From an uncultured Tateyamaria sp. (lineage in GTDB: Bacteria; Pseudomonadota; Alphaproteobacteria; Rhodobacterales; Rhodobacteraceae), in NCBI RefSeq assembly GCF_947496075.1, contig NZ_CANMBJ010000005.1, forward strand, positions 248,001 through 312,000: 64,000 bases of DNA. The letters run 5' to 3'. Numbering within the stretch: the stretch's first letter is position 1; every line of letters starts with the position of its first letter. The translations under genes were made by a program, and so were the position numbers. The notes under the pieces were generated by a model. The model had not been told where the DNA came from and ran no database searches. It saw only the letters and a program-made list of their open reading frames with translations. Shown here one piece after another: positions 2,602-56,483 of this stretch.

Positions 2602-2929
2602 TGGTGCGGACGGCGGGACTCGAACCCGCACGATCATACGATCGAGAGATTTTCTTACCCGCTACGGCTTTCGCCGCCGACGCATCGCGTCGTTTGTGGT
2701 CTGGACTATCCCTTCACCATCCCCGGTCGCCCGGCCTTAGGTGCTGCCCGTCTAGTCTCTACACCTTCCGATCAGGACAAGTATCCAACCGGCTTGGCTC
2801 GGGATTGGCATGGGCTAGGTATGGCCATTAGCTTTCCCCGAATTTGAGCAGTTCTACTCCCGAGGTTTCCCCCGAGGCACTCAAAACATGGCTTAAGTCT
2901 CTTGTGTCTACCGATTCCACCACGTCCGC
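2602..2929 (-). tRNA. tRNA-Leu(UAA), split by a group I intron
   Basis: On the minus strand the 5' exon (2929-2895) begins GCGGACG and contains the D-arm GTGGAATCGGTAGACAC. It ends in the anticodon loop CTT. The 3' exon (2653-2602) resumes with AAAA and TCTCT, then a long variable arm (CGATC/GATCG), a T-arm with GGTTCGAGTCC, an acceptor strand CGTCCGC fully complementary to the 5' end, and an encoded CCA at 2604-2602. Joined, the exons give an 87-nt class II tRNA. The anticodon stem is AGAGA/TCTCT, the loop is CTTAAAA and the anticodon is UAA. The break lies between U34 and A35, the insertion site known from cyanobacterial and plastid tRNA-Leu(UAA) genes. Standard tRNA finders may miss it because of the intron. 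Confidence 0.93.
2654..2894 (-). ncRNA. Group I self-splicing intron in tRNA-Leu(UAA)
   Basis: This 241-nt insert interrupts the anticodon loop and has the hallmarks of a small IC3-type group I intron. The 5' exon end ACUU can pair with an internal guide GAGU (rc of 2879-2882), giving the canonical U.G wobble at the 5' splice site. The conserved core is readable: CAATCCCGAGCCAAGCC (P/Q region), AGAGACTAGACGGGCAG (P7 5' strand near 2760-2744) and AGGGATAGTCCAGAC (P7 3' strand near 2713-2699). GACTA and TAGTC are complementary and form P7. The last intron base is G (2654), as expected. It contains no homing endonuclease ORF. I infer splicing competence from the intact core; it was not folded by computer. 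Confidence 0.9.
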
Positions 2930-3083: not shown

Positions 3084-3638
3084 CTACAATTCCTGACCTT
3101 CTGGACCAAGCGGCGCCCCATCCGCCAACAAATGACGTTCGGACAGCCACGGGTTGTTTACCAGCGCCTTTTCAAGCTGCGCGCGCGCGTCGTCTCGTCG
3201 GCCAAGGTTCATGAGTGTGAGCGCTCTTCCAGACTGCGCACCTACATGATCGGGGGACAGGTCCAAAGCCCGGTCCAAATCAATCAGTGCAGTAGCAAAA
3301 TCCTCGCGCAGGAAACTGATAAAAGCCCGCTGGTTGTACCCTTCCGCGTAGTCTGGACAGTAACTCACGAGCTTATCAAAGCTGTCATGGGCACCGGCAA
3401 AGTCGAAACTGCTCCGTTGACGCATCCCACGATCCAGAACTTCCTGTGCAGCGGCGTCGGGTGCGCGCAACCACAATTGCCACATCTGGTCAGATGCAAC
3501 CTGCCCGTTGCGTTCATCCGGCGCAGCATTCGCATCGGCGATCAATGCCTGCAACTCGACAGAAATGTCCGGCGCAGGCGGACATGTTTCCGCCAATGCT
3601 GGGCTGGACAACAACAGGGCGACAATAGCGTATCTCAT
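3084..3638 (-). CDS. Secreted/periplasmic TPR-repeat protein
   Basis: A 184-residue protein with a clear Sec signal peptide (MRYAIVALLLSSPALAET, cleavage after ALA). The C-terminal two thirds read as tetratricopeptide helices: FDFAGAHDSFDKLVSYCPDYAEGYNQRAF, then a repeat around DFATALIDLDRALDLSPDHVGA, then a repeat around NLGRRDDARAQLEKALVNNP. TPR domains mediate protein-protein contacts, so a periplasmic scaffold or assembly role is likely, but no partner is indicated. It lies downstream of and parallel to putR, with a gap of about 40 bases, so cotranscription is possible. The specific function is unknown. Confidence 0.8.
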   Translation of the reverse strand: MRYAIVALLLSSPALAETCPPAPDISVELQALIADANAAPDERNGQVASDQMWQLWLRAPDAAAQEVLDRGMRQRSSFDFAGAHDSFDKLVSYCPDYAEGYNQRAFISFLREDFATALIDLDRALDLSPDHVGAQSGRALTLMNLGRRDDARAQLEKALVNNPWLSERHLLADGAPLGPEGQEL

Positions 3639-3680: not shown

Positions 3681-4208
3681 TTACTCAAGACCGGGCAGCA
3701 TAACTTCTTTGACGGCTTCCATAGCCACATAGGTCGATGTTGACGCTACATGGGGAAGGCTTGAAATCACATCCCCGAGAAATTGACGATACTGCGCCAT
3801 ACTCCGAGTGCGGACCTTCAAGAGATAGTCGAAATGGCTCGCAATCATATGGGCTTGCTCAATCTCCGGGATTTGCTGAACAGCCGTATTGAATCCACGC
3901 AGAGCCGCCTCACGGGTATCACTCAGGCGCACTTCCACAAAGGCCACATGATCAAGCCCCAGCGAAATCGGATCAAGCAGTGCGCGATACCCCATTATGA
4001 TCCCGGCTTTCTCCAACCGCCGCAGCCGCGCCTGTGTCGGGGACTTGGACAGACCAATGCGCGTCGCAAGATCGGTGATGCTGATCCGACCATCCTCGGC
4101 AAGGGCCGTCAGAATCGATTGATCCAGCTTGTCCAATGCATTCGGTTTCTTCGCTTTCGTATCCTGCCTGAAGCTATTCATTTGTTCTGCTGTTTCCGTC
4201 AAATTCAA
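3681..4208 (-). CDS. putR: Lrp/AsnC-family regulator, PutR-type activator of putA
   Basis: A 175-residue Lrp/AsnC regulator. It has an N-terminal winged helix-turn-helix (LDQSILTALAEDGRISITDLATRIGLSKSPTQARLRRLE, about residues 27-65) and a C-terminal RAM ligand-binding and oligomerisation domain ending in ASTSTYVAMEAVKEV. It is divergently transcribed from putA with only 55 bases between the starts. In Rhodobacter and related bacteria this arrangement is known: the Lrp-like PutR activates putA in response to proline and autoregulates. A PutA without its own DNA-binding domain, as here, fits an external regulator. The gene name rests on position and family. Confidence 0.9.
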   Translation of the reverse strand: MNLTETAEQMNSFRQDTKAKKPNALDKLDQSILTALAEDGRISITDLATRIGLSKSPTQARLRRLEKAGIIMGYRALLDPISLGLDHVAFVEVRLSDTREAALRGFNTAVQQIPEIEQAHMIASHFDYLLKVRTRSMAQYRQFLGDVISSLPHVASTSTYVAMEAVKEVMLPGLE

Positions 4209-4263
4209 TCATTTTACCTACTCAACCGATGATACACTTAGCTAAATGGAAAAGGAAAGCGCC

Positions 4264-7200
4264 ATGGTACGAGAAATGAACCGTGAACTGGCTACCCAGC
4301 TTGACAACGGCATGTATGCTGAACCCGACGCCGTTCTGGCGGACCTGATCCAAACCGCCAATCTGTCTGCCATGGACCGGAATGCGATCTGCGAACGCGC
4401 CGCTCATTTGGTCACTGCCATCCGCACCCAAGCCGCACCGGGTCTGATGGAGACCTTCCTGGCTGAATATGGTCTATCGACGGATGAGGGGATCGCTCTC
4501 ATGTGCTTGGCAGAGGCTCTTTTGCGTGTGCCGGATGCCGATACCATCGACGCGCTGATTGAAGACAAGATTGCCCCGTCGAACTGGGGCAAACATTTGG
4601 GCCATTCGACGTCGTCACTGGTGAATGCATCCACATGGGCGCTGATGTTGACCGGGCGCGTACTGGATGACGATCAACCGGGTCCGATTGGCCACCTGCG
4701 TGGGGCGATCAAACGATTGGGCGAGCCCGTGATCCGGGCCGCCGTCTCCCGTGCAATGAAAGAGATGGGGCGACAATTCGTATTGGGCGAGAGCATCGAC
4801 AGCGCCATGGAGCGCGCTGCGGGAATGGAAGCCAAGGGTTTCACCTATTCCTACGATATGCTCGGAGAGGCCGCGATGACCGACGCCGACGCGCGGCGCT
4901 ATCATTTGAGCTATTCCCGCGCCATCTCTGCCATAGCGCGGGCCTGCACCAGCGCAGATATCCGCGAAAACCCCGGCATCTCTGTCAAGTTGTCCGCCCT
5001 GCATCCCCGCTATGAACGCGCACAAGAGGCCGCGGTGATGCGCGATCTTGTACCCCGCTTGCGGTCGCTCGCCCTGCTTGCCGCATCGGCGGGAATGGGT
5101 CTGAATGTGGATGCGGAAGAAGCCGACCGTCTGTCACTGTCCCTGCAGGTGATTGATGCGGTCCTGCGAGAAAAGGCGCTTGCCGGTTGGGACGGGTTCG
5201 GCATCGTGGTTCAGGCTTACGGTCCGCGCGCAGGCACCGCTATCGATGCGATCCACGATATGGCCGCACGGTACGATCGCAAGGTGATGGTGCGGCTGGT
5301 CAAGGGCGCATATTGGGACACTGAAATCAAGCGTGCACAGGTCGAAGGTGTTGCGGGCTTTCCCGTCTTCACCCGCAAGGCCGCAACCGACGTGTCCTAT
5401 ATTTCGAATGCGCGCAAATTGCTGGGTCTGACCGACCGCATCTATCCGCAATTCGCAACCCACAATGCCCACACCGTCGCGGCGATCCTGCATATCGCCA
5501 ATGGGCAACCCTTTGAGTTTCAACGTCTTCACGGGATGGGTGAGGCGTTGCACAGCATGGTGCTGCGCGAAAATGGTACAAGGTGCAGGATTTATGCGCC
5601 CGTGGGCGCACATAGCGATCTCTTGGCCTATCTGGTGCGACGGCTTCTGGAAAACGGCGCCAATTCCAGCTTCGTGAACCAGATCGTCGACGAGGATGTG
5701 CCGCCAGAGGTGGTGGCCGCCGATCCGTTCGCAGCGCTGGAAGACAGCGCGATCACCATCCCAGACGGCCCTGCGCTGTTCGCGCCCGAGCGCCGCAATT
5801 CGCAAGGATTTGACCTGACCCACACACCCACCTTTTCACGGATTGAAAAGGCGCGTCAGGACTTTGCTGCACATCAGTGGAACGCACAATCGCTCACGGT
5901 CAGAACGGGTGATGGCATTCAAAAACCTGTCTTGAACCCAGCCGATCCGGAGGATGTCGTGGGCACCGCCCTTTGGGCCACATCGGACGTGGTGAACAAA
6001 GCCGTCGCAGACGCCAGGGAATGGTCCGTCTCTGCCGAAGAGCGCGCGCGCATCCTGAACGCTGCTGCCGACCTATACGAGGCGGCTTTTGGCGAGCTCT
6101 TTGCTCTTCTCGCTCGCGAGGCGGGCAAAACGCTGCCGGACGCCGTGGCCGAACTGCGCGAAGCCGTGGATTTCCTCCGATACTACGCGACACACTCGGA
6201 CAGCAGCGCTCCTGCAGGCATTTTTGTCTGTATCTCGCCATGGAACTTTCCTCTGGCGATCTTCACTGGACAGATCGCGGCAGCACTGGCCGCCGGCAAT
6301 GCGGTTCTGGCCAAACCGGCGGAACAAACATCCTTGATCGCATACAGAGCCATCGAGTTGTTGCACCAAGCTGGCGTTCCGCGCACCTCCCTGCAATTGC
6401 TTTTGGGCGCGGGCGATATTGGTGCGGCACTGACCAGCCACCCCGATGTCAATGGCGTCGCCTTCACCGGCTCAACAGACACCGCGCTGCGCATCCGAGC
6501 CAATCTGGCCGACCATGCAGCACCCGGCACACCTCTGATCGCCGAAACCGGCGGACTGAACGCGATGATCGTCGACAGCACCGCTTTGCCCGAACAAGTG
6601 GTACGCAGCATCGTTGAAAGCGCATTTCAATCCGCCGGGCAACGCTGCTCCGCCCTGCGCTGCCTCTATGTGCAAGAGGATATCGCACCGCACCTGACCG
6701 AAATGTTGATCGGGGCAATGGACGCTCTAAACGTAAGCACCCCTTGGCAGCTTGCAACCGACATAGGCCCCGTCATCAATCCTGAAGCGCAGGCCGACAT
6801 AGATACATATATTGCCACCGCTCGCACAGAGGGGCGACTGCTGCACCAGCTCGAAACCCCGACCCACGGGTACTTTGTTGCACCCACCCTGATCCGTGTG
6901 GATGGCATCGGAGATATCGAGCGGGAAGTGTTTGGTCCGGTTCTACATATTGCGACTTACGAGGCCGCTGACCTCGATGCCGTGATCGACGCCATCAATG
7001 ACACGGGGTACGGTCTGACTTTCGGCCTCCACACCCGCATAGATGACAGGGTGCAACATGTGACGGACCGCATTGCTGCAGGCAATGTCTATGTCAATCG
7101 CAATCAGATCGGAGCCATCGTGGGCAGTCAGCCCTTTGGTGGACACGGACTGTCGGGGACTGGACCAAAGGCGGGCGGGCCGGACTATCTGTTGCGTTTC

Positions 7201-7677
7201 AGGGCACAAACACCCGAAGCATCATCCGGAACGTGGATCGCCCCCTCAGCGCTACCCCCGCTGCCAGCGAATTCGGATACGGTTCAGGACAGCACCACTC
7301 TGCCCGGCCCAACAGGCGAGTCAAACGTACACAGCCGCTCCCCACGGCCTGCACTGCTTTGCGCCGGCCCAGGCCCCGAAACAGCGGCAGCCCAGATGGC
7401 GGCCGTGACAGCATTGGGAGGTAACGCCGTTGTAGCCAGCGGGGAGATTGACCCCAAAACGCTGACCGACGGCCCTGCGTATGGCGGTGTGCTCTGGTGG
7501 GGTGCAATTGAACCAACGGGCTCCGCCTTGGAAAAGGCCCTCGCCAAGCGCAGCGGCCCGATCATCCCCTTGATCACAGGACAGCCAGACAGAGCACACG
7601 TCTTTGTCGAACGGCATGTCTGCGTGGATACAACCGCTTCGGGTGGGAACGCGGCACTGCTTGGCGCGGCCAGTTGA
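4264..7677 (+). CDS. putA: Bifunctional proline dehydrogenase / L-glutamate-semialdehyde dehydrogenase (type B PutA)
   Basis: It oxidises proline to pyrroline-5-carboxylate (FAD domain), then to glutamate (NAD domain), on the inner face of the membrane. The FAD/PRODH barrel includes RLVKGAYWD beginning at residue 344. The aldehyde dehydrogenase domain shows FTGSTDTA, the base-bearing AETGGLNAMIVD, and the catalytic Cys in SAGQRCSALRC at about residue 795. There is no N-terminal ribbon-helix-helix region, so it is not an autoregulating PutA. A C-terminal extension of roughly 100 residues matches the ALDH-like tail of type B PutAs. I chose the ATG at 4264 because AAGGAA sits 7 bases upstream; an in-frame ATG at 4246 lacks a good ribosome site. 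The length from 4264 is 1137 residues. Confidence 0.96.
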   Translation: MVREMNRELATQLDNGMYAEPDAVLADLIQTANLSAMDRNAICERAAHLVTAIRTQAAPGLMETFLAEYGLSTDEGIALMCLAEALLRVPDADTIDALIEDKIAPSNWGKHLGHSTSSLVNASTWALMLTGRVLDDDQPGPIGHLRGAIKRLGEPVIRAAVSRAMKEMGRQFVLGESIDSAMERAAGMEAKGFTYSYDMLGEAAMTDADARRYHLSYSRAISAIARACTSADIRENPGISVKLSALHPRYERAQEAAVMRDLVPRLRSLALLAASAGMGLNVDAEEADRLSLSLQVIDAVLREKALAGWDGFGIVVQAYGPRAGTAIDAIHDMAARYDRKVMVRLVKGAYWDTEIKRAQVEGVAGFPVFTRKAATDVSYISNARKLLGLTDRIYPQFATHNAHTVAAILHIANGQPFEFQRLHGMGEALHSMVLRENGTRCRIYAPVGAHSDLLAYLVRRLLENGANSSFVNQIVDEDVPPEVVAADPFAALEDSAITIPDGPALFAPERRNSQGFDLTHTPTFSRIEKARQDFAAHQWNAQSLTVRTGDGIQKPVLNPADPEDVVGTALWATSDVVNKAVADAREWSVSAEERARILNAAADLYEAAFGELFALLAREAGKTLPDAVAELREAVDFLRYYATHSDSSAPAGIFVCISPWNFPLAIFTGQIAAALAAGNAVLAKPAEQTSLIAYRAIELLHQAGVPRTSLQLLLGAGDIGAALTSHPDVNGVAFTGSTDTALRIRANLADHAAPGTPLIAETGGLNAMIVDSTALPEQVVRSIVESAFQSAGQRCSALRCLYVQEDIAPHLTEMLIGAMDALNVSTPWQLATDIGPVINPEAQADIDTYIATARTEGRLLHQLETPTHGYFVAPTLIRVDGIGDIEREVFGPVLHIATYEAADLDAVIDAINDTGYGLTFGLHTRIDDRVQHVTDRIAAGNVYVNRNQIGAIVGSQPFGGHGLSGTGPKAGGPDYLLRFRAQTPEASSGTWIAPSALPPLPANSDTVQDSTTLPGPTGESNVHSRSPRPALLCAGPGPETAAAQMAAVTALGGNAVVASGEIDPKTLTDGPAYGGVLWWGAIEPTGSALEKALAKRSGPIIPLITGQPDRAHVFVERHVCVDTTASGGNAALLGAAS

Positions 7678-56174: not shown

Positions 56175-56483
56175 AATGCATCCAAGTCGGGCGTATTGCT
56201 CACTCGTCGGTCGCTGGCTTGACGAAAGACGCCCTACTTCATGCGATTTCGTTTTGGTTCGTTGGCAGGTTTAGCACTCTGGTAAGAGCAGCGACGCCTC
56301 GGTGTCTGCCGACCGTGCCTGACGGGTATCAAACGCGGGGTCTTTTGCCAAGCTGTGGATGCCCGGATCACTTGTTTTGTCCGGCCCGACCGATCCGGAC
56401 GCATCTCTTGTCCCAATCACTCAAATGGCATGTAGCGGGCCGATGCGTCCGTCCAATTTCCGACTTCGACAAGGATTGACACC
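56175..56483. other. 309-bp intergenic region between divergent DUF2087 and RTX hydrolase genes
   Basis: No coding frame of note and no obvious repeats. It must contain promoters for both directions. The start of the RTX hydrolase follows the weak site AAGGAT at 56470. I saw nothing else. Confidence 0.4.

What the first reader, a model, noticed from the sequence alone, without database searches (positions are those of the whole stretch)
2602..2929. tRNA-Leu(UAA) interrupted by a 241-nt group I intron in an alphaproteobacterium
Both exons fold to a perfect 87-nt class II tRNA, the break is between U34 and A35, and the insert has group I core motifs, P7 pairing, a U.G wobble at the 5' splice site and a terminal G. 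This position is classical for cyanobacterial and plastid tRNA-Leu introns. In proteobacteria, introns are best known from tRNA-Arg(CCU) and tRNA-Ile(CAU). A tRNA-Leu(UAA) intron here raises the question of vertical descent or transfer. Automatic tRNA callers may drop this essential gene.
Basis: partly seen in the sequence, partly recalled or inferred. Interest (0 to 1): 0.75.

Follow-up and report, generated by a model that had tools for sequence, protein, structure and literature searches.

The report
Self-splicing intron in imported leucine tRNA
The bacterium's only known tRNA for the leucine codon UUA is split by a probable self-cutting RNA, seems to have arrived as a whole gene from other bacteria, and belongs to a family carried by integrating DNA islands that destroy the host's copy of this tRNA gene and bring a replacement.

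Summary
Window 2929-2602 (minus) is tRNA-Leu(UAA) with a 241-nt group I intron between U34 and A35; RF00028 gives 46.5 bits, just under its cut-off. No other UUA reader was found in the genome. Such introns prove widespread in Alphaproteobacteria.

What is new is how they move. Of 20 genomes of the genus, 16 have an uninterrupted gene; the 4 intron-bearing ones have none, sit at the same locus and have foreign exons (87/87 identical to a record labelled Hoeflea, at best 71/87 to congeners). The whole gene was replaced.

In 13 of 131 intron-bearing loci a relic 5' half of an uninterrupted tRNA-Leu(UAA) lies upstream on the same strand; in 12 it breaks off at the anticodon loop. Five islands (22-58 kb) keep both native halves. 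Their crossover, CTTAAAA, is where the intron sits in the replacement tRNA: an island counterpart of phage 'tRNA-dependent lysogeny'. I propose that the intron hides the replacement from the integrase.

The window copy shows no integrase or relic; its island origin rests on the tree, where the three nearest rows outside its clade are island-borne or lie beside the integrase. Splicing and att-masking are untested.

The parts
2602..2929 (-). tRNA-Leu(UAA) gene interrupted by a group I intron (whole gene incl. encoded CCA)
2895..2929 (-). 5' exon, 35 nt, ends ...GAGACUU (U33, U34)
2654..2894 (-). group I intron, 241 nt, too short for a homing endonuclease gene; ends in G
   Evidence: pair counts
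2602..2653 (-). 3' exon, 52 nt, starts A35 A36 A37 A38, long variable arm, CCA
2700..2853 (-). catalytic core P3-P8 (hit of covariance model R1, 156.6 bits)
2879..2898 (-). P1: exon ACUU and intron AA paired with UUGAGU, U.G at the splice site
2704..2757 (-). span of P7 (GACUA 2757-2753 with UAGUC 2708-2704)
3084..3638 (-). TPR protein, conserved upstream neighbour of the tRNA locus in the genus
3681..4208 (-). Lrp/AsnC-type regulator, conserved neighbour
4246..7677 (+). PutA-type proline dehydrogenase/aldehyde dehydrogenase, conserved neighbour; 0 UUA in 1144 codons

Best explanation
Window 2929-2602 minus is a working tRNA-Leu(UAA) gene whose precursor removes a 241-nt group I intron (IC3 type, the label recalled), with guanosine as cofactor, from between U34 and A35. 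The tRNA was not interrupted where it stood. A complete intron-bearing gene came in by horizontal transfer and took the place of the native, uninterrupted gene at the native locus in one branch of the genus. Genes of this kind are spread in Alphaproteobacteria by integrative elements. Their tyrosine integrases cut the host tRNA-Leu(UAA) in the anticodon loop (CTTAAAA) without rebuilding it, and the element supplies the intron-bearing tRNA-Leu(UAA) as replacement. Shown by sequence: intron, structure, no second copy found, exclusive occurrence at the same locus, foreign exons, element anatomy in other genomes. Inferred: splicing in vivo, island origin of this particular copy, and the order of events.
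For: Gene and intron. No other UUA reader found: an RF00005 search gives Leu UAG, CAA, GAG and CAG but no UAA; UUA occurs 15 times in 13,974 codons, in 10 of 26 long ORFs picked by length. Replacement: 16 of 20 congeners have an uninterrupted anticodon arm, the 4 intron-bearing ones none; in the family 13 of 14 intron-bearing genomes have none, against 166 of 184 others that have one, Fisher p 3.4e-11, kinship not corrected. Same locus. Exons 87/87 identical to L092 (labelled Hoeflea) and 71/87 at best to five distinct congener sequences. Polyphyly. Elements: 13 of 131 loci with an upstream relic 5' half; 13 loci with a related integrase, all upstream on the same strand, 11 of them 48-149 nt from the tRNA; five islands with both native halves and complementary stems; integrase-side search. 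In the careful tree the window clade (11 rows, bootstrap/SH-aLRT 99/97) has island-borne L130 as next row (100/85), then L467 (integrase beside it) and L478 (relic and integrase) (99/76).
Against: None of five integrases matches the window or the 20 kb before it, and no relic half is there. Ten ORFs beside six close relatives gave no integrase. So the link of this copy to islands is a tree position only; the bootstrap of that tree had not settled, and an earlier quick tree placed L169 there instead of L467 and L478. Splicing has not been observed. One family genome (G138) has both an intron-bearing and an uninterrupted copy. The RF00005 list lacks Tyr, Ile(GAU) and Ala(UGC), so it is not complete by itself.
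Confidence: 0.82

Rival explanations
1. Vertical descent: the alphaproteobacterial ancestor had the intron-bearing gene, and most lineages lost the intron (or regained an intronless gene).
For: Same position as in cyanobacteria and in many Alphaproteobacteria; the four genus members as one clade are not rejected (AU p 0.85; 0.45), so descent inside the genus is likely. Same locus as in relatives L107, L111, L012, L016, L010.
Against: Family introns as one clade rejected (p 0.0116; 0.0002); exons of intron-bearing and intronless congeners differ in acceptor arm, D loop and variable arm, which precise intron loss would not cause; 87/87 identical exons in a record labelled Hoeflea and 83/87 in Carnimonas, a gammaproteobacterium.
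Confidence: 0.1
2. The intron alone moved into the resident tRNA (homing or reverse splicing), the exons being native.
For: Transposition was claimed for tRNA-Arg(CCU) introns of alpha-purple bacteria (Paquin 1999, title seen in a reference list); Daredevil's tRNA-Lys shows that a relative sits in another tRNA.
Against: No room for an endonuclease gene in 241 nt; exons are closer to intron-bearing genes of other families (87/87, 83/87, 79/87) than to congeners (71/87 at best).
Confidence: 0.07
3. [quoted passage not shown]
For: 118 of 131 loci show no relic in the stretch held, though only 83 hold 2.3 kb or more upstream; 71 of 94 IMG/VR stretches carry an intron-bearing tRNA-Leu(UAA) with no attP-like arm in the held stretch; a viral contig replaces tRNA-Leu(CAA) by an uninterrupted copy.
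Against: Fixed order and strand (13 of 13 relics, 13 of 13 integrases); disrupted native halves with the complete intron-bearing gene just inside the element; crossover point equals intron site. All 3 integrase loci found from the integrase side that show a relic UAA half carry the intron-bearing tRNA (one of them cut by the contig end), while 19 of the 385 genomes searched have such a gene.
Confidence: 0.4
4. Dead or decaying gene.
For: Below the Rfam gathering score.
Against: The written stems pair, with covariation; no other UUA reader found; the joined exons fold as a tRNA.
Confidence: 0.02

Closest known systems
[quoted passage not shown]
   Same: Same tRNA, same position U34|A35; aligned and placed in one tree with 28 cyanobacterial rows.
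   Different: Cyanobacteria fall in a separate, long-branched group (SH-aLRT 100), with one MAG labelled Tatlockia inside. [quoted passage not shown]
tRNA-Arg(CCU) and tRNA-Ile(CAU) introns of proteobacteria
   Same: Related core; L019, L022, L023 are called tRNA-Arg(CCU) introns in the same host family and match the core model. [quoted passage not shown]
   Different: Other tRNA and position; no element association was examined here.
Phage tRNA-dependent lysogeny (PMC10865867, mBio 2024; abstract and passages read)
   Different: Reported for actinobacteriophages, no tRNA intron named in the passages seen; here islands of Alphaproteobacteria with an intron-bearing tRNA. [quoted passage not shown] an intron-bearing tRNA-Lys(UUU) lies beside its integrase.
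Archaeal idea that MGE att sites carry tRNA introns (Sugahara 2012, as told in PMC8371274, passage read)
   Same: Mobile elements as vectors of tRNA introns.
   Different: Archaeal tRNA introns and an intron-bearing attP; here a complete replacement gene apart from the crossover site.

Membership tests
Group I intron (RF00028) | Conserved P3-P9 fold with P7 guanosine site | tested here: met
   46.5 bits, E 1.4e-10, but under the gathering score 50; pair counts
Group I intron (RF00028) | U.G at the 5' splice site and terminal G | tested here: met
   both in 24 of 24 aligned sequences
Group I intron (RF00028) | Guanosine-dependent self-splicing | not testable with these tools
   needs in vitro transcription
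tRNA-Leu(UAA) intron family | Insertion between U34 and A35 of tRNA-Leu(UAA) | tested here: met
tRNA-Leu(UAA) intron family | Descent from the cyanobacterial lineage | tested here: inconclusive
   unrooted trees, cyanobacteria apart
tRNA-dependent integration (relatives' islands) | Host tRNA disrupted at a short core and not rebuilt | tested here: met
   five islands
tRNA-dependent integration (relatives' islands) | Element supplies a same-isotype tRNA needed for survival | tested here: inconclusive
   tRNA present; need not tested
tRNA-dependent integration (the window copy itself) | Integrase, relic halves, element ends at the locus | tested here: not met
   none found: the window gene is not filed as an island, only as a relative of island-borne genes

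The most novel reading that the evidence does not exclude
The intron is an integrase shield. An element that destroys tRNA-Leu(UAA) must carry a replacement, yet an uninterrupted replacement would itself be an attachment site and would invite self-excision, deletion or superinfection. A group I intron placed exactly at the crossover point splits the site in DNA and is spliced out in RNA, so the tRNA works but cannot be attacked. This would give selection for group I introns in bacterial tRNA anticodon loops and a vehicle for their spread without homing endonucleases. Once a host keeps such a gene, as in the window, its essential tRNA is also protected from later elements of this kind.
Probability: 0.45. 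Interest if true: 0.88.

Novelty: new variant of a known kind. Interest (0 to 1): 0.7.

Why it matters
Why bacterial group I introns sit in tRNA anticodon loops, and how ones without an endonuclease spread, is an old open question. The island anatomy gives a concrete vehicle (replacement tRNA of tRNA-destroying elements) and a testable benefit (the intron splits the attachment site). It also warns annotators: default tRNA and Rfam scans miss a probably essential gene here, and a published phage said to have no tRNA of its own carries such a gene.

Tried and rejected
Rejected: recent transfer from cyanobacteria (separate branch); pseudogene; intron-only homing as the main story (exons foreign); a relic or integrase at the window locus (none found).

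Led nowhere: no protein of known structure matched the L150 integrase by sequence at E 0.01. A viral scan with it gave one relative. No integrase among 8 ORFs tested in the G608 island. Ten ORFs around six close relatives of the window gene showed none.

Corrected on checking: the quick tree was not the best one (met a better one), so I built a careful tree. The grouping of L169 with the window clade seen did not hold; L130 held, and L467 and L478 joined.

Dropped rows: in the tree six rows taken as near-copies (L003, L005, L153, L101, L134, L175) were left out and only 9 of 71 parsed viral genes used; for five long rows (L202, Daredevil, L161, L295, L358) were also removed. Of 119 pattern stretches 110 parsed; of the nine not parsed, five gave no core-model hit (L097, L118, L120, L122, L145), two gave one although cut by the stretch end (L112, L135), two were not examined. 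Relic hits L018 (a tRNA-Leu(CAA)) and L093 (a second intron-bearing copy) were not counted among the 13; L123's relic lacks one T of the loop and reads further into the 3' stem.

Full report
THE OBSERVATION. The reverse strand of window 2929-2602 reads as an 87-nt class II tRNA-Leu(UAA) broken by 241 nt. ARAGORN without introns finds no tRNA in the window, and Rfam at gathering thresholds does not report the intron. With E-values it does: RF00028, 46.5 bits against a cut-off of 50, E 1.4e-10, model positions 1-253; it is the only RF00028 match at E up to 10 in the 4.94-Mb genome of 11 contigs. Two further checks, which share sequences and are not independent: on 24 relatives the helices P1-P9 pair in 98.3% of cells (shuffles 88.9%, slid partners 27.5-43.9%), and 19 of 47 pairs show changes on both sides; a covariance model of the P3-P8 core (23 sequences, window included) gives the window 156.6 bits. 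The helix names are mine, from general knowledge of group I introns.

IS IT THE WORKING GENE? A search of the own genome with RF00005 gave 39 tRNAs; the leucine ones read UAG, CAA, GAG and CAG, none UAA. The list lacks Tyr, Ile(GAU) and Ala(UGC), so it is not complete. But BLAST with the gene and a pattern for an uninterrupted tRNA-Leu(UAA) anticodon arm also found no second copy. UUA codons are rare but occur: 15 in 13,974 codons, in 10 of 26 ORFs of 250 aa or more, picked by length and not verified as genes. So the interrupted gene is very probably essential and must be spliced. Splicing itself was not observed.

REPLACEMENT, NOT INTERRUPTION. In the genus, 20 genomes were searched. Four carry the intron-bearing gene at 89-100% identity, and exactly these four lack an uninterrupted arm, which the other 16 have (Fisher p 2.1e-4). 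In the family, 14 of 198 genomes have a full-length relative by BLAST; 13 of these lack an uninterrupted arm, while 166 of the other 184 have one (p 3.4e-11). Kinship is not corrected for in either test. The exception, G138, has an intact copy beside a tRNA-Met on a 60-kb contig. The locus is the same: the upstream TPR, Lrp/AsnC and PutA-type genes are collinear between the window, intron-bearing and intronless congeners, while the downstream side varies. Yet the exons differ. The window's spliced tRNA is 87/87 identical to L092 (record labelled Hoeflea), 86/87 to L107 and L111, 83/87 to L108 (Carnimonas, a gammaproteobacterium), but at best 71/87 to five distinct sequences of intronless congeners, which rank 41st or lower of 160. 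L107 and L111 share the locus with about 66-73% identical flanks but about 90% identical tRNA genes.

DISTRIBUTION AND TREE. By record title 63 of the 110 are Alphaproteobacteria, 28 cyanobacteria, 6 Bacteroidota, 3 beta- and 2 gammaproteobacteria, 1 each Thermodesulfobacteriota and Acidobacteriota, 6 without class. In a BLAST search of 385 alphaproteobacterial genomes 31 match at E 1e-10, 19 of them from the start of the gene into the intron, the own genome included (a lower bound). A first, quick tree of 151 introns proved not to be the best one, so I built a careful tree of 146 (its bootstrap had not settled). There the 17 rows of the host family need 12 changes, at least 5 forced by well-supported branches, and holding them together is rejected (AU p 0.0002; quick tree 0.0116). 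The four genus rows as one clade are not rejected (p 0.45; quick 0.85). The window's clade (genus, L111, L107, L092, L007, L104, L157, L108) has bootstrap/SH-aLRT 99/97. With the tree rooted on a cyanobacterium, my choice, the next row is L130 from an island (100/85), then L467 and L478, both beside an integrase and L478 with a relic half (99/76). L169, which one search put there, is elsewhere. The 22 rows known to be beside a relic or integrase are scattered (18 changes).

THE ELEMENTS. I scanned the 131 parsed loci for further tRNA halves. Thirteen have a relic 5' half of an uninterrupted tRNA-Leu(UAA), always upstream on the same strand, about 0.2, 1.4-1.5 or 2.2 kb away; in 12 the likeness to a tRNA ends at GACTTAAAA or within three bases after it, as read from the printed sequences. 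This is a lower bound: 83 of 131 loci hold 2.3 kb or more upstream. In L150 and L102 the space holds a tyrosine recombinase of 434 and 426 aa (PF00589 at E 2e-5 and 2.7e-4, under the curated cut-off). With these two as queries 13 of 132 loci (the window included) are hit, all upstream on the same strand, 11 of them ending 48-149 nt before the tRNA; L158 and L004 have cut or fragmentary hits at 204 and 311 nt. Twenty-one other loci in the same search, 17 of them with an uninterrupted tRNA-Leu(UAA), gave none.

From the integrase side, 385 alphaproteobacterial genomes gave 15 places in 13 genomes. Three (L208, L211, L216) have a relic UAA half, and all three carry the intron-bearing tRNA, in L216 cut by the contig end. 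L212 carries it without a relic found, and in G583 (L209) it lies about 2 kb downstream of the integrase. The rest lie beside intact tRNA-Met(CAU) (L210, L213, L217, L218, L219, L221), Leu(UAG) (L214), Arg(ACG) (L215) or no tRNA that was found (L220, L222); the genomes of L214 and L220 have an intron-bearing gene elsewhere. A viral contig (L223) has a relic Leu(CAA) half, the integrase and an uninterrupted replacement that differs by one base in the loop.

The displaced 3' halves were sought in 12 genomes. Five islands keep both halves on one contig in the right order, with complementary anticodon stems: G599 about 49.5 kb, G608 34.6 kb, G610 31.4 kb, G603 22.2 kb, G609 58.4 kb. In G610 even the acceptor stem tells native (GCCCGCG/CGCGGGC) from replacement (GCTCGCG/CGCGAGC). 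Both junctions share CTTAAAA, the anticodon loop, so the crossover lies where the intron sits. G606 has an orphan 3' half, but no relic 5' half was found. In G609 and G610 a tyrosine integrase with an arm-binding domain lies at the far end, next to the displaced half; so different integrases go with the same arrangement. In G608 none was found among 8 ORFs tested.

HOW IT PROBABLY WORKS. The element destroys an essential tRNA and supplies a replacement, as described in 2024 for actinobacteriophages as tRNA-dependent lysogeny (PMC10865867, abstract and passages). That paper speculates that an introduced tRNA gene can itself serve as attachment site. A group I intron at the crossover point would prevent this without loss of the tRNA. 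The review PMC8371274 (passages) says that the 7-bp anticodon loop and its stem match the overlap region and core organisation of tyrosine recombinases. Support for the shield is positional only. Against it: the uninterrupted Leu(CAA) replacement of L223, intron-bearing tRNA-Leu(UAA) genes in 71 parsed of 94 IMG/VR stretches without an attP-like arm in the held stretch, and 118 of 131 loci without a relic in the stretch held.

DAREDEVIL. Gordonia phage Daredevil is said to integrate at tRNA-Lys-TTT and not to encode its own tRNA. Beside its integrase lies a tRNA-Lys(UUU) with a group I intron between positions 34 and 35 (core model 110 bits, E 1.2e-25; not found by RF00028 at E 0.001), about 150 nt from an uninterrupted copy of the anticodon arm. 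The paper reports clear plaques for this phage, as expected without a tRNA, so whether this gene works is open.

WHAT IS KNOWN AND NEW. [quoted passage not shown] in proteobacteria a gammaproteobacterial case of 2002 is recalled, not read. Transfer of the whole tRNA locus was proposed for cyanobacteria (Rudi 2002, title in a reference list). New here, as far as ten searches of an open-licence library show: the link of these introns to tRNA-destroying integrative islands, and the coincidence of intron site and crossover. The window copy is a relative, perhaps a descendant, of such genes, now resident without any element found.

Noticed in passing
L006 (NC_048021.1, Gordonia phage Daredevil) 3879-4190 and about 3709-3727: Unannotated tRNA-Lys(UUU) with a group I intron next to integrase gp54 and an attP-like anticodon arm; [quoted passage not shown]
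   Followed up: partly
L002, L003, L005 (enterobacterial and Acinetobacter plasmids), match at 6001-6300: 1276 of 72,556 plasmid records match the window gene (1270 over at least 80% of it), mostly Escherichia and Klebsiella; in 3 of 4 plasmid records looked at it lies near aac(3)-IId. L002's intron is nearest by path to island-borne L095 and L137. Described only.
   Followed up: partly
L270-L363 (IMG/VR contigs): 71 of 94 stretches parse as intron-bearing tRNA-Leu(UAA), many with the same 5' exon; no attP-like arm in the held stretch. A 2014 review (PMC3984707, passages) says phage introns observed to that date were all in protein genes.
   Followed up: partly
L021, L024, L025: Group I introns with the same core in other tRNAs of the family; ARAGORN calls Thr(GGU), Ser(GCU) and Pro(CGG), not verified.
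   Followed up: no
L223 3832-5449 (IMG/VR): Relic tRNA-Leu(CAA) half, an integrase match with stops in the frame tried, and an uninterrupted replacement tRNA-Leu(CAA) with a changed base in the loop.
   Followed up: partly
L093 5533 and about 6268: Two intron-bearing tRNA-Leu(UAA) 5' exons of different types on opposite strands within 0.8 kb in one MAG.
   Followed up: no
window 56263-56315, minus: COG3860 RNA motif (RF02940), 63.6 bits, the only Rfam hit over its cut-off in the window.
   Followed up: no
   Followed up: no
L498 11430-18670 against window about 2220-2577: Downstream of the tRNA an intronless congener has about 7 kb that the window lacks; the locus seems variable on its 3' side.
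   Followed up: partly
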